Of a stretch of DNA of 10,511 nt, positions 4,344 to 9,739 are shown piece after piece (position 1 is the first letter of the stretch; every line of letters begins with the position of its first letter). Source of the stretch: Acidobacteriota bacterium (lineage in GTDB: Bacteria; Acidobacteriota; Terriglobia; Terriglobales; Acidobacteriaceae); NCBI GenBank assembly GCA_003224785.1, contig QHZV01000181.1:1-10511 (forward strand), read 5' to 3'. The notes below the pieces were generated by a model. It did no database searches and was not told the origin of the DNA. It saw only the letters and a list, made by a program, of their open reading frames with translations. The position numbers were made by a program, and so were the translations under genes.

Positions 4344-5939
4344 TTACGCCTTAACGGTCTCTCTCACTCTCTCGCTGACCGTAAATTTCACTTTGCCTGA
4401 CATAGTGTCCGCATCCACCGCAACGTGGTCGCCATGCAACACCTCGCCATCAAGGATCTTTAGCGCGAGCGGGTCCTGAATCAGTTTCTGGATGGCACGC
4501 TTCAGAGGCCGCGCGCCAAAATTTGGATCGTAACCTTCCGCGAATAGCAGGTCGCGCGCCGCGTCAGTCAGTTCGAGCGAAATCTTACGGTCGGCCAATA
4601 GCCGTCGCACGTCTTCGAGCCGGAGGTCAACGATCTTCACTAATTGTTCTTTGCCTAATGGGCTGAAGATGATGATGTCGTCCACACGATTGAGGAATTC
4701 CGGCTTGAAGTGCGCATGCAACGCATTCATCACTTGCCGCGAAGCTTCGTCAAACCAGGATCCATCTCGGCTGCCCAACGCCTCGATCGCGCCAGCTTCT
4801 GCTTGCAAGTAAGCCGATCCCAGGTTCGACGTCATAATGATGATCGTGTTCTTGAAATCTACGGCACGTCCTTTGCCGTCAGTTATGCGGCCGTCGTCCA
4901 TGATTTGCAGGAGCACATTAAACACGTCCGGATGCGCTTTCTCGATCTCATCGAAGAGCACCACCGCATAGGGACGCCGACGCACCTGCTCCGTGAGCTG
5001 CCCGCCTTCTTCATAGCCAACATATCCCGGAGGCGCGCCAATCAGCCGCGCCACCGCATGCTTCTCCATGTACTCGGACATGTCAATGCGAACCATGGCA
5101 TGCTCGTCGTCGAAGAGAAAGTCGGCGAGCGCACGCGCTAGCTCGGTTTTTCCGACGCCAGTAGGTCCTAGAAAAATAAATGAGCCAATTGGCCGCTTAG
5201 GATCGCTAAGCCCTGCCCGCGACCGGCGAATCGCATTCGAGACACGCTCCAGCGCCGCATCCTGCCCAATCACGCGTTGGCGCAGCCGATCTTCCATATT
5301 GACCAGCTTCTTCACTTCGCCTTCAAGCATCTTCGAGACAGGAATGCCGGTCCACTTGGAAACGATCTTGGCAATATCTTCCTCATCAACTTCTTCTTTG
5401 AGCATGCGTGGAGTTGCTCGTGTGGGGCGGGCGCCCTCGCCCGCCTGCCCGTCCATCTGAGCATTTACCTTGGCCAACTCTGCTTCGGCCTGTCGCAACA
5501 GGCCATACCTAATCTCAGCAACGCGCTGCAAATTCCCCTTGCGCTCTTCCGTCTGCTCCTCAATTTTGAGCTGCTCAATACGTTCCTTGAGCTGCCGCGA
5601 TTTCGCGATGACATCTCCCGCGAGACGTTCCTTTGAATTCGGATCGCTTTCTTTCTTTAACGCCTGCTTTTCGATCTCCAATTGGGTCTCGCGGCGCTCC
5701 AGCTGATCAATTTCCGTTGGCATGGAGTCGATCTGGATACGCAACGACGCCGCAGCCTCGTCAATCAGATCAATGGCCTTGTCAGGGAGGAAACGGTCAG
5801 AAATGTAGCGGTGCGATAGCGTTGCCGCCGCGACGATTGCAGAATCCTTGATTCGCACCCCGTGGTGCACTTCGTAGCGCTCTTTGAGCCCGCGCAAGAT
5901 CGCAATGGTGTCTTCAACATTCGGTTCGCCGACAAACAC
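4344..5939 (-). CDS. clpB: ClpB C-terminal fragment (end of NBD1, middle domain, NBD2)
   Basis: An open frame of 531 residues if begun at the GTG at 5937-5939, although the frame is open back to the TGA. It contains the end of the first ATPase, the coiled-coil middle domain that docks DnaK, and a complete second ATPase with Walker A, pore loop, Walker B and sensor 2. No Shine-Dalgarno precedes the GTG or the next ATG codons, so independent translation looks unlikely without reinitiation or readthrough. Retention of every NBD2 motif and the absence of any further stop in more than 500 codons argue that the interruption is recent or artefactual. Confidence 0.65.
5420..5445 (+). repeat. Palindromic repeat inserted in frame in clpB
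   Basis: GTGTGG is followed at once by an 8-bp stem GGCGGGCG / CGCCCGCC around the loop CCCT. On the clpB strand the surrounding bases encode about 15 extra residues ([14 protein letters not shown] and neighbours) between the end of the middle domain and the conserved [13 protein letters not shown] of NBD2, a linker that other ClpB proteins keep short. The repeat has no stop in the clpB frame. The layout matches the repeat at 8844-8869 inside rlmI. Confidence 0.7.
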
Positions 5940-6056
5940 GATTTGGAAACGGCGTTCAAGCGCTGCATCCTTCTCAATGTACTTCCGATATTCATTAAGG
6001 GTGGTCGCGCCGATCGCGCGTAGCTCGCCGCGAGCCAGGGCTGGCTTCAGGCTATT

Positions 6057-6059
6057 TCA
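6057..6059 (-). other. clpB: Premature in-frame TGA within clpB
   Basis: On the coding strand the local reading is GCC TGA AAT AGC CTG AAG. Relatives encode Ala-(Ser/Gly)-Asn-Met-Leu-Lys here, so both the TGA codon and the AGC two codons later are aberrant. GCCTGAA occurs twice, 10 nt apart (top-strand 6046-6052 and 6056-6062), as if a short templated copying event had rewritten these bases. A selenocysteine reading is unlikely: ClpB has no selenocysteine at this position and no convincing SECIS loop follows. Confidence 0.8.
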
Positions 6060-6953
6060 GGCATCGATTGCGCCCTCAGCGGCACCTGCGCCAACAAGGG
6101 TGTGCAGCTCGTCAATGAACAGAACGATTTGTCCCTGCGAATTTTCAATCTCTTTAAGCACCGCTTTCAGCCGATCTTCGAATTCGCCGCGATACTTCGC
6201 TCCCGCCAGCATGGATCCAAGATCAAGAGCCACTACTCGCTTATTTCTCAGAACCTCGGGGACATCGCCCGAGATAATTCTTTGTGCGAGTCCTTCGACG
6301 ATGGCGGTTTTGCCAACGCCCGGTTCGCCGATTAGAACGGGGTTGTTTTTGGTGCGGCGAGACAAAACTTGCACTACGCGGCGAATCTCCTCGTCGCGTC
6401 CAATTACAGGATCGAGTTTCCCACGACGGGCCTGCTCGGTCAGATCGCGAGCATAGCGCTCCAGCGCCTGATACTTGGCTTCGGGATTCTGATCGGTAAT
6501 GCGCTGAGATCCGCGAACTGCGGTGAGTGCCTTCAGAATGGCGTCGTGAGTTGCGCCGTGTTGCGCAAGAATCTCTTGAGCTGGATCGCGCTTGAGTTGG
6601 GTCGCAGCCAGTAGCAGATGCTCTGTCGAAACGTATTCGTCTTTGAACGTATCGGCTTCTTTGAAGGCCTGATCCAGAAGCTGATTTGCAGCTTGGGAAA
6701 GCGAAGCCTGCGCCGCCGCGCCTGAAGTCTTCGGCAAGCGCTCGATCGCTTCATAGATCTCATTCAGCACAGCCTGCGGTCCGATACCGATCTTCTCCAG
6801 CACAGGCTGCACGATGCCTTCTTTGTCCTCGAGCAACGCCGCGAGGAAATGCAGCGGCAGTAGCTCAGGATTGCCGTGCTCCGACGCGAGTTCGTTTCCG
6901 CGCTGTACCGCCTCTTGCGCTTTTAATGTGAATTTGTCCCAACGAATGGGCAT
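6057..6953 (-). CDS. clpB: ClpB N-terminal fragment (N domain plus truncated NBD1)
   Basis: The 298-residue product that would be made if the TGA terminates. It keeps the double Clp N domain that recognises aggregates, plus Walker A and Walker B of NBD1. It lacks the NBD1 arginine fingers (the ERRF segment comes after the stop), the NBD1 small subdomain, the middle domain and all of NBD2. It could bind nucleotide weakly but should not form a working hexameric threading motor. Its ribosome-binding site and start are the native clpB signals. Confidence 0.7.
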
Positions 6954-6968
6954 GGTGAACTCCTATAG

Positions 6969-7048
6969 ATCAGCTTTTAGCCCTTAGCTTCTAGCCAATC
7001 CAAATTTTTGAGGGTCGAGTTGATGACAGCTAAAACCTAAGAGTCAAG
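6969..7048. repeat. Heptad inverted-repeat element, copy 2
   Basis: This is the second copy of the ~80-bp element seen at 1186-1269. The left arm carries TTAGCCC and TTAGCTT heptamers and shares an exact 14-mer (6976-6989) with copy 1. The right arm starts at 7028 with AGCTAAAACCTAAGAG, 15 of 16 matches to copy 1. The central 30 bp is unrelated between copies. Its left edge lies next to the clpB ribosome-binding site, and its right edge touches the T tract of the hsp20 terminator. Confidence 0.7.
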
Positions 7049-7084
7049 AATAAAGGGAGGCGCATGCTCTCGCCGCCTCCCTTT
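7041..7084 (-). terminator. Intrinsic terminator of hsp20
   Basis: AAAGGGAGGCG (7052-7062) and CGCCTCCCTTT (7074-7084) form a perfect 11-bp stem with an 11-nt loop. On the - strand transcript the stem is followed by TTTATTCTTGACT, a good uridine-rich tail. It starts 24 bp after the hsp20 stop, so most hsp20 transcripts should end here and clpB would depend on readthrough or its own promoter. Confidence 0.8.
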
Positions 7085-7108
7085 CGATGCTTCCTGCAGA
7101 CCGACGAT

Positions 7109-7603
7109 TTACGCAGCGCGGCTGGCGCTCTTCACTTCCTTCCCCTCAAGCGCCTTTTCGCTGCCTACGTTGACTTTGATCTGCTTCGGCTTGGCCTCTG
7201 CCTTCTTGGCAAGCTGGATCTTCAGGATCCCCTTGTCGTAGTGGGCCTGTGCCTGATCCGCATTGACTGTGGTCGGCAGCGTGAACGAGCGGGTAAAACT
7301 GCCATACTGCCGCTCCACGCGGCGGAAGTTCTCCTCTTTTTCTTCCTGCTCGAACTTGCGCTCGCCGTGCACGGTCAGCAAATTGTTCTCGATTCGGACA
7401 TCAATGTCCTTCTCGTCAATTCCCGGCACTTCAATCTTCAAAGTGACGTTGTGTTCGTCCTCGTAAACATCAACCGGCGGGGCGAAAGTTGAAGTTGACA
7501 GCGCCTCCTGCCCTTCGCCGTAATTATCACGGAACAAACGGTTCATGCGGTCTTGCAAAGTAGTGAATTCGCGGAATGGATCCCAGCGAGTAAGAACGGT
7601 CAT
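7109..7603 (-). CDS. Small heat-shock protein, Hsp20/alpha-crystallin family
   Basis: A 164-residue holdase chaperone that binds unfolding proteins in the cytoplasm and hands them to DnaK/ClpB. The N-terminal arm MTVLTRWDPFREFTTLQDRMNRLF is typical of bacterial class A members. The alpha-crystallin domain spans about 41-133 and includes VDVYEDEHNVTLKIEVPG and the signature AHYDKGILKIQLAK. A C-terminal I-K-V (142-144) is the IxI-type motif that docks in a neighbouring subunit. The start at 7603 is set by AGGAGG seven bases upstream; an in-frame ATG 33 bp further out has no such site. It has its own promoter and terminator and lies upstream of clpB on the same strand, a sensible pairing of holdase and disaggregase. 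Confidence 0.95.
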   Translation of the reverse strand: MTVLTRWDPFREFTTLQDRMNRLFRDNYGEGQEALSTSTFAPPVDVYEDEHNVTLKIEVPGIDEKDIDVRIENNLLTVHGERKFEQEEKEENFRRVERQYGSFTRSFTLPTTVNADQAQAHYDKGILKIQLAKKAEAKPKQIKVNVGSEKALEGKEVKSASRAA

Positions 7604-7610
7604 GACAGTT

Positions 7611-7616
7611 CCTCCT
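7611..7616 (-). promoter_or_regulatory. Shine-Dalgarno of hsp20 (decides the start)
   Basis: The top-strand CCTCCT reads AGGAGG on the coding strand, seven bases before the ATG at 7601-7603. This is the best ribosome-binding site in the window and rules out the longer in-frame start at 7636. Confidence 0.9.
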
Positions 7617-7656
7617 GTATGAGAAGTCTTAATCAAAATTGGGCTGGTCGTCGTGG

Positions 7657-7673
7657 GCGCTATGATTTAGCGC
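7657..7673 (-). promoter_or_regulatory. Palindrome at the hsp20 transcription start, possible operator or 5'-UTR hairpin
   Basis: GCGCTA and TAGCGC form a perfect 6-bp inverted repeat with a 5-nt spacer (TGATT on the top strand). It begins about 7 bp downstream of the predicted -10 box, right at the expected transcription start. It could be a repressor site or the first hairpin of the roughly 70-nt leader. It is not the CIRCE consensus and not a recognisable ROSE thermometer. Confidence 0.4.
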
Positions 7674-7679
7674 AAGTAC

Positions 7680-7708
7680 AGCATAAAATGTGAGCGAGTT
7701 GTTGTCAA
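7680..7708 (-). promoter_or_regulatory. Predicted sigma70-type promoter of hsp20
   Basis: On the - strand TTGACA (7703-7708) is followed after exactly 17 bp by TATGCT (7680-7685), matching all 6 -35 and 4 of 6 -10 consensus positions. It lies in the gap after the rlmI stop, about 75 bp before the hsp20 start codon. The hexamers fit the housekeeping sigma factor rather than the sigma32 consensus, so heat control, if any, would come from another element such as the adjacent palindrome. Confidence 0.7.
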
Positions 7709-7731
7709 GCACTGGATCTGCTTAAATTCTA

Positions 7732-9042
7732 TTAACTTACAGCCAGTATCAGGCACTTCAAGTAAGCTGTTTCCGAGATTCCTAACACGCTCGGATGGTC
7801 TTTCGCTTGGCCCCGGTTTTCCAAAACTCGGACAATTCTGTGCGAGTCGAGGGCTGCGGCGGCAACAATTTCCATGAAATCTGGCGCGCTCACGTGGTAC
7901 GAGCATGAGCAAGTGACCAGGATTCCGCCCGGCCGCAGCATCTTAAGCGCTCGCAAATTCTGCCGCGATTTGGCAAAGGGTGGCGGATCGAGCACGATGC
8001 AGTCGTACTTGTTACCGGCGTCGGAATAGTCTCGCAATAAGTCGAAGGCGTTGGCCTCGATCCATTCGATTTCCCGTCCGTTCAGGGCAGCGTTCTTTTC
8101 CGCAATTTCGAGAGCTGGACGCGAGCTGTCAACGCCGGTGACTTTCCCGGACTGTTCCGCAAGATGCAGCGCGAAGCCACCTTGATAGCAGAACACATCG
8201 AGCGTCTCGCCGCGCGCATACTGAGCCGCGGCAGCATAGTTTTCACGCTGATCGAGGAAGGCTCCGGTCTTCTGTCCACCTAGGGCGTCAAACCGAAAAC
8301 GCACGCCGTTCATCTGAAACTCGGTTGAAAGTTGGGTGTGTATCAGAGGTGCTCCATTCTCCTCGGCTTGCGTAGGGACGGTCGTCTCGACCGTGAATTC
8401 GCCCCAAATCACTCCACTCTCCCTCTCTTCCAACCGCTCCAACTTCCTCACCCTCGCATCGACTCTCTCCACAATCGCTCTTGGCTGAAAAGCGAGCTTC
8501 AGCTCCTCAAGGAAGATGTCGCGAAGCGACGCCGCGTCCATCGCCTGGGTGAGAACTTGCAGGGAAAGAATGTCGTTGTAGCGGTCCACGATCAGTCCCG
8601 GCAGAAAATCCCCCTCGCTGAAGATCACGCGATAGGCATTCGTGTCCCGCACAAAGCCCTGGCGATAGGCAATCGCCGCCCGAATTCGCTCCCGCACTAG
8701 CTGATGGATGTCTTCGACAGGCCCGCGCGAAATCATCCGCAGCGCAATTTCAGAAGCGGAGCTGTATAAGGCCGTGCCGAGGATGCGTGCGGGACGGGCA
8801 GGCACGGTCCGTCTGGGTCGAACATGCTTGTCCGATAAAATCTGTGTGGCGCGGACACCCCTGTCCGCGGGTCTGTTGGAAGTTGCATTCGCTTGTTCTT
8901 GGACGAGCACAACAGAACCGGGCGCCGCACTCGCGGTTTCCACCACATCCGACCGGTACACCCAAACGTGCCCGGCACGAATGCGTTCACCTCCGCGCCG
9001 CGAGATAGTCACGATCGGGTACGAAGATTGTTCTTGTCCCAT
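7732..9042 (-). CDS. rlmI: RlmI-type 23S rRNA (cytosine-C5) methyltransferase with repeat insertions
   Basis: A 436-residue class I SAM-dependent methyltransferase of the RlmI/YccW family, which methylates C5 of a cytosine in 23S rRNA (C1962 in E. coli). It has an N-terminal PUA-like domain (about 8-107: SRRGGERIRAGHVWVYRSDV, LGTALYSSASEIALRMISRG), a central linker domain with FLPGLIVDRY, and a Rossmann domain with GAFLDQREN (261-269), LDVFCYQGGFALHLA (281-295), motif IV DPPPFAKSR (352-360) and TCSCS (377-381) holding the catalytic cysteine. E. coli RlmI has 396 residues. The extra length comes from about 39 residues at 49-87 and a shorter stretch around 217-224, both made of palindromic repeats. 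Relatives have about 10-13 more residues (ending RGYKEIN) between KSR and NLRALK, so a small deletion is likely here. There is no strong Shine-Dalgarno at the start. The fold looks intact, but activity is uncertain. Confidence 0.85.
   Translation of the reverse strand: MGQEQSSYPIVTISRRGGERIRAGHVWVYRSDVVETASAAPGSVVLVQEQANATSNRPADRGVRATQILSDKHVRPRRTVPARPARILGTALYSSASEIALRMISRGPVEDIHQLVRERIRAAIAYRQGFVRDTNAYRVIFSEGDFLPGLIVDRYNDILSLQVLTQAMDAASLRDIFLEELKLAFQPRAIVERVDARVRKLERLEERESGVIWGEFTVETTVPTQAEENGAPLIHTQLSTEFQMNGVRFRFDALGGQKTGAFLDQRENYAAAAQYARGETLDVFCYQGGFALHLAEQSGKVTGVDSSRPALEIAEKNAALNGREIEWIEANAFDLLRDYSDAGNKYDCIVLDPPPFAKSRQNLRALKMLRPGGILVTCSCSYHVSAPDFMEIVAAAALDSHRIVRVLENRGQAKDHPSVLGISETAYLKCLILAVS
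8371..8394 (+). repeat. Palindromic repeat within rlmI, C-terminal site
   Basis: After CGTAGGG comes a perfect 7-bp palindrome ACGGTCG / CGACCGT with loop TCT (8378-8394). On the rlmI strand it encodes TVETTVPT (residues 217-224), in a loop between the linker domain and the methyltransferase core where homologues show no such sequence. It stays in frame and stop-free. Its C/T-rich loop flanked by G and C resembles the palindromes at 3870 and 5426, although the loop is one base shorter. Confidence 0.55.
8782..8898 (+). repeat. Composite repeat insertion within the PUA domain of rlmI
   Basis: About 117 bp encode residues 49-87 of RlmI (for example PADRGVRATQ and RRTVPARPARI). Only a few residues are expected here, between the VVLV and LGTALYS strands of the PUA-like domain. 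It contains GTGTGG followed at once by an 8-bp stem CGCGGACA / TGTCCGCG with loop CCCC (8844-8869). A further inverted partner TGTCCG lies at 8829-8834, and a GC-rich stretch with GACGG and CCGTC sits at 8793-8812. The whole is open in the rlmI frame. The boundaries are estimates from the protein comparison. Confidence 0.65.
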
Positions 9043-9118
9043 GAAGTGAATGTTACGCCGGCAGAAGAGTGGATATTGGAAGCACCCGTGGAAGACATCG
9101 GGCTCCGCATATTCCGCA

Positions 9119-9124
9119 TATAAT
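9119..9124 (+). promoter_or_regulatory. Possible -10 box of the mlaD-like gene
   Basis: A perfect TATAAT stands 51 bp before the start codon of the MlaD gene, but no good -35 hexamer is found 16-18 bp upstream. An inverted repeat TGACCG / CGGTCA (9124-9129 and 9148-9153, 18-nt spacer) begins at its last base and would straddle the transcription start, so it could be an operator. Both readings are tentative. Confidence 0.4.
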
Positions 9125-9175
9125 GACCGGACTTGTTCGTCATTCTTCGGTCACCACGGCGATGAGGGCAAAATT

Positions 9176-9739
9176 ATGAGATGGAATATCCTGCGAGCCG
9201 GCGCTGTCATTGGACTAGCACTGTTAGCTATCTCCCTGCTGCTAATTGGGAAGCCTCTCGCGCACAAACTGGTCGTCAAATCTTATTTCACGGACGCAAA
9301 TGGGTTGCGTTCCGGGGCGGCGGTGCGGCTAGCTGGGGTTGATCTCGGGTCGGTCACGAGTGTTCGTGTCAGACCGGAATCGAAGGATGCGCCAGTTGAA
9401 ATAGTGATGGCGCTGAAGACGGGATATGAGCTGAACATTCCGAATGACTCCACGGTTTCACTGGAAACGGCTGGCGTTCTCGGTCAGACGTTCGTCGAAA
9501 TTGACAGCCATACCGCATCAGGGCCGCCGATCCAATCTGGCTCGACCTTAAAAGCACAGCCAACAGCAAGTCTCACAACTGAAGAAATGATCGCTAAATT
9601 CGCGACCGCATTTAACCTGAGCACAGCAGAAGCATTGGAAAAACTGGAGTCGCGTATCAAAGAACGTTGCGACGGCGAGAAGGTTCAGTCAGGCGTTACA
9701 AACAAGCGACCGGCATCCAAGGCGCGCCCAGCCAATTAG
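9176..9739 (+). CDS. MlaD/MCE-domain lipid transport protein
   Basis: A 187-residue protein with one N-terminal membrane helix (about 8-25) and a single MCE domain (about 32-112), including the signature VVKSYFTDANGLRSGAAVRLAGVDLG and then VSLETAGVLGQTFVEID. This matches the size of E. coli MlaD (183 residues), which forms a hexameric ring in the periplasm and passes phospholipids between the MlaFE ABC transporter and the outer membrane. The C-terminal 75 residues have a short helix (TTEEMIAKFATAFNLSTAEALEKLESRI) and a basic, disordered tail. The start at 9176 is supported by GAGGG seven bases upstream; a longer open frame back to 9050 lacks such a site. No mlaE or mlaF is within the window, so its partners must be encoded elsewhere or further right. 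The stop overlaps the stop of the convergent zinc-ribbon gene by 3 bp. Confidence 0.88.
   Translation: MRWNILRAGAVIGLALLAISLLLIGKPLAHKLVVKSYFTDANGLRSGAAVRLAGVDLGSVTSVRVRPESKDAPVEIVMALKTGYELNIPNDSTVSLETAGVLGQTFVEIDSHTASGPPIQSGSTLKAQPTASLTTEEMIAKFATAFNLSTAEALEKLESRIKERCDGEKVQSGVTNKRPASKARPAN

What the first reader, a model, noticed from the sequence alone, without database searches (positions are those of the whole stretch)
6046..6062. clpB carries a single in-frame TGA in the conserved NBD1 segment, next to a second aberrant codon
The two halves of clpB are in exactly the same frame, and every ATPase motif on both sides is intact. Only codon 299 (TGA) and codon 301 (Ser in place of a conserved hydrophobic residue) deviate. 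GCCTGAA is duplicated 10 nt apart across the site, which suggests a short templated rewrite rather than one random substitution. Loss of ClpB while hsp20 stays well expressed would be physiologically interesting. Alternatives are an assembly or sequencing error, or readthrough.
Basis: partly seen in the sequence, partly recalled or inferred. Interest (0 to 1): 0.7.

Follow-up and report, generated by a model that had tools for sequence, protein, structure and literature searches.

The report
Broken clpB in an error-rich assembly
The stop codon inside this environmental bacterium's chaperone gene is really in the sequence, but the draft genome around it is full of small missing pieces and near-identical intact copies are known, so it is most likely an assembly error rather than a lost chaperone.

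Summary
The clpB frame (4344-6953, minus) has one in-frame TGA at codon 299 (6057-6059) and Ser at codon 301; 29 of 29 clpB genes extracted from relatives read Ser-Asn-Met there. Public ClpB proteins 99% identical to the window are intact at both clpB sites, and 98-99% identical RlmI proteins are intact too. The damage is not special to clpB: six contigs of this genome show 14 short deletions or frame breaks plus this stop in 72.6 kb of aligned coding sequence, without frame preference. In the gene set of five of those contigs G003 shows none and G004 three. The assembly also has N runs that the G003, G004 and G005 stretches lack. Best reading: an artefact of a 65.7%-complete, 490-contig draft. 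Against it: substitution-type patches are not in excess in this genome, so a real strain mutation at codon 299 is not excluded. The 7-nt duplication is within chance expectation.

The parts
4344..6953 (-). clpB frame, 869 codons plus stop, interrupted at codon 299
   Evidence: hits named ClpB
6057..6059 (-). in-frame TGA, codon 299
   Evidence: the 29 extracted relatives have Ser there
6051..6059 (-). 9-nt aberrant patch, codons 299-301 (stop-Asn-Ser), no change of length
   Evidence: not more than chance
5615..5616 (-). junction of an in-frame loss of 69 nt (23 residues; middle domain by recall)
   Evidence: residues present in P0001-P0004 and P0008
7959..7960 (-). junction of an in-frame loss of 36 nt (12 residues) in the rlmI-like gene 7732-9042
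   Evidence: (10 of 10 relatives aligned have the residues)
7732..9042 (-). rlmI-like 23S rRNA methyltransferase gene
   Evidence: names given by sources; alignments

Best explanation
The in-frame TGA and the two nearby deletions are most likely artefacts of a fragmented draft assembly; the living organism most likely has an intact clpB. Shown: short deletions and frame breaks about once per 5 kb in unrelated genes of this assembly, with no frame preference; N runs, two of them at frame breaks; intact ClpB and RlmI proteins 98-99% identical to the window. Inferred: short pieces were lost or wrongly closed where contigs were joined, and the 9-nt patch at codon 299 is a wrongly resolved join or a low-coverage stretch.
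For: Draft of 490 contigs, 65.7% complete. Intact P0001 and P0002 (99%) and P0003, P0004 (97%, 96%) for ClpB; intact P0121-P0123 (98-99%) for RlmI. 15 lesions in 72.6 kb over six contigs (6 in-frame deletions, 8 frame breaks, this stop); without the window 12 in 63.4 kb. In-frame 6 of 14, p=0.31 against one third. Same gene set of five contigs: G003 none, G004 3 distinct frame breaks. 9 internal N runs in this genome's sample; none in the G003, G004, G005 stretches, one in G001.
Against: Substitutions look normal: 672 private residues here against 677 in G004 over 16,693 triple-aligned codons, and isolated clusters of private changes 3 against 5. The codon-299 patch is thus the only stop and not one of an excess of substitution patches. 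The window itself has no N run. Other relatives' assemblies also show some events: 9 in 107.5 kb (3 frame breaks, 3 deletions, 3 insertions). No reads or DNA of a near-identical copy could be seen.
Confidence: 0.82

Rival explanations
1. clpB is truly inactivated in this strain by a clustered multi-base mutation, perhaps together with the middle-domain deletion, and recently, because the rest of the gene is not decayed.
For: The patch is several changes within 9 nt without change of length, unlike the 14 other lesions. Substitution patches are not generally in excess in this assembly. One family member, G008 (90% complete), shows no strong clpB match, so life without ClpB may occur in the family.
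Against: Near-identical intact proteins exist, outside the lesions clpB is 99% identical to them, and the same contig carries a further lesion in an unrelated gene.
Confidence: 0.14
2. The TGA is read through or recoded and a full-length ClpB is made.
For: The frame stays open for 570 codons after the TGA.
Against: TGA is an ordinary stop here: by a rough criterion 21 of 61 gene ends that coincide with a relative's end are TGA, 22 TAA, 18 TAG. No SelB C-terminal domain (PF09107) in the draft, while the E. coli control rang; weak, since the draft is 65.7% complete. The extracted relatives have Ser, not Cys, there. Readthrough would not explain the missing 23 residues.
Confidence: 0.02

Closest known systems
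ClpB/Hsp104 disaggregase (PDB 6dju, 1qvr among the best matches of intact P0002)
   Same: The frame as a whole is a ClpB; intact near-identical proteins match solved ClpB chains over almost the whole length.
   Different: Stop at codon 299 and 23 residues missing.
False pseudogenes in fragmented metagenome assemblies (a class named from general knowledge; paper searches returned nothing)
   Same: Many short deletions without frame preference, N runs, and near-identical intact copies.
   Different: The codon-299 patch is substitution-like without change of length, unlike the 14 other lesions.

Membership tests
ClpB disaggregase | one uninterrupted frame with both ATPase domains | tested here: not met
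   TGA at codon 299; both halves present in the same frame
ClpB disaggregase | complete coiled-coil middle domain | tested here: not met
   23 residues missing; the domain boundary is recalled, not computed
assembly artefact | lesions absent from near-identical copies | tested here: met
   protein level only; whether those copies come from other samples is not known
assembly artefact | same kind of damage in unrelated genes of the assembly, more than in comparison genomes | tested here: met
   deletions and frame breaks:
assembly artefact | excess of substitution-type patches like the one at codon 299 | tested here: not met
   clusters 3 against 5 in G004
assembly artefact | raw reads contradict the consensus | not testable with these tools
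   no reads held
true pseudogene | lesions shared by another copy of the same strain or species | tested here: inconclusive
   not seen in the 120 listed, but the collection is clustered at 90% identity
TGA recoding or selenocysteine | TGA not an ordinary stop, or Sec machinery present | tested here: not met
   the draft is incomplete

The most novel reading that the evidence does not exclude
This strain has truly lost ClpB through a clustered mutation and a middle-domain deletion while near-identical kin keep the gene, as one step of a wider loss in the family (G008 shows no strong clpB match).
Probability: 0.12. Interest if true: 0.3.

Novelty: not a real feature. Interest (0 to 1): 0.07.

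Why it matters
Mainly as a caution. If the sampled rate (15 lesions in 72.6 kb) held over the 2.6 Mb, this draft would contain hundreds of false pseudogenes. Gene-loss claims from it need reads or independent copies.

Tried and rejected
Templated rewrite from the duplicated 7-mer: not needed, such pairs are within chance expectation.

Genetic-code change or selenocysteine: rejected. A tRNA scan of 16 sampled contigs found one tRNA, uninformative.

Searching for the same truncated protein elsewhere: of 688 hits the 120 listed are at most 91% identical to the window's 298-residue half; one of them (P0318, 86%) is also 298 long and was not looked into. The collection is clustered at 90%, so this is not conclusive.

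Naming the genome through genome contigs: own record not returned, best-segment identities at most 76%. The source project stays unknown.

Paper searches on assembly-made pseudogenes and gap closing returned nothing. The ClpB middle-domain search was seen only as a listing of 10 of 26 papers with the starts of their abstracts.

First lesion scans were noisy with wrong-frame matches; counts used come from the filtered.

Full report
Observation. The minus-strand frame 4344-6953 encodes ClpB. Codon 299 is TGA and codon 301 is AGC. I extracted clpB from 29 loci of relatives; 29 of 29 have Ser-Asn-Met at 299-301 with near-identical flanks. One search covered 40 relatives; the other 11 were not extracted, and one of them, G008, shows only Clp-type matches of 67-70% identity.

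The same gene lacks 23 residues in frame (69 nt, junction 5615/5616), which all 29 extracted relatives have. By recall this is the coiled-coil middle domain, described as essential for disaggregation in the abstract start of PMC4023160 (listing only). The neighbouring rlmI-like gene lacks 12 residues in frame (36 nt, junction 7959/7960) that 10 of 10 aligned relatives have (an eleventh, L042, has only a partial gene and was left out).

Intact near-identical copies. A search of 5.8 billion proteins, with X at the stop, returned P0001 and P0002 (892 aa), 99% identical to the window in the multiple alignment (97% in the search table); they have Ser-Asn-Met and the 23 residues. P0003 and P0004 (97%, 96%) are intact as well. 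For rlmI, P0121-P0123 (448-449 aa, 98-99%) have the 12 residues. The sources are public contigs of other lengths than this one; whether they come from other samples is not known.

Is the damage special to clpB? The genome is a 490-contig draft, 65.7% complete. I compared five of the 20 other contigs fetched (20.0, 16.1, 15.5, 12.4 and 11.8 kb; a 14.9-kb one was not compared) and the window with relatives: G004 and G003 for the five, twelve relatives' stretches for the window. The filtered scan covered 72.6 kb of aligned coding sequence and found 15 lesions: 6 in-frame deletions of 36-90 nt, 8 frame breaks, and this stop. By contig: 5, 4, 2, 1, 0, and 3 in the window. Without the window it is 12 in 63.4 kb, 4 of 12 in frame. 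Two frame breaks are small (about 11 nt) and could be alignment effects. In frame are 6 of 14 (p=0.31 for 6 or more if one third is expected). Genes under selection would not look like this, so most of these deletions are probably not in the living genome.

Controls. Twelve relatives' clpB neighbourhoods (107.5 kb aligned) gave 9 events: 3 frame breaks, 3 deletions, 3 insertions. Four of the six deletions and insertions lie in a variable loop of rlmI, and the other two are mirror images of each other. In the gene set of the five contigs (loci from short matches left out) G003 gave no deletion, frame break or stop. G004 gave 3 distinct frame breaks (one is listed three times) and one stop against a 69%-identical frame that may not be a gene; the other rows of that call, four for G004 and two for G003, mirror this genome's deletions. 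Lesion load thus differs between assemblies of one genus.

Gaps. The sampled contigs hold 9 internal N runs of 17-123 nt; four further contigs read entirely N and are set aside. There are none in 357 kb of G005 or in the G003 and G004 loci, and one in 16 kb of G001. Two N runs lie at frame breaks in L047. The operators may also withhold stretches as N, so their origin is not certain. The window has none. That short joins were closed with bases missing is inferred.

Evidence against. Substitutions are normal: 672 private residues here and 677 in G004 over 16,693 triple-aligned codons; isolated clusters of private changes 3 against 5. The codon-299 patch is therefore not one of a demonstrated excess of its own kind. 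Calling it an artefact rests on the intact near-identical copies, the demonstrated deletion errors, and two further lesions on the same contig. A true mutation in this strain keeps a real chance (0.14).

Recoding. By a rough criterion TGA ends 21 of 61 genes whose ends coincide with those of relatives. No SelB domain was found. The residue in the extracted relatives is Ser.

Verdict. Ordinary: most likely an assembly artefact; a recent real loss is possible; readthrough is very unlikely.

Noticed in passing
L039 (G001:C490), position 5580: clpB of G001 (same genus) has about 100 nt missing with a frame break; G001 also has an N run.
   Followed up: partly
L037 (G005:C7), position 12142: hsp20 of G005 appears frame-shifted by one or two bases.
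   Followed up: no
G008: A family member, 90% complete in 20 contigs, shows only 67-70% Clp-type matches to the clpB query and may lack clpB.
   Followed up: no
L047 (G000:C445), about 6715-8305: A stretch is 89-100% identical to G004 while its surroundings are 73-77%: possible recent transfer or cross-assembly.
   Followed up: no
window 8690-8715, rlmI-like gene: Residues 111, 112 and 116 differ from P0121-P0124, a small cluster of substitutions without change of length.
   Followed up: no
window 9050-9739: This frame found no match in the 12 relatives' stretches around clpB, so it is not part of the conserved neighbourhood there.
   Followed up: no
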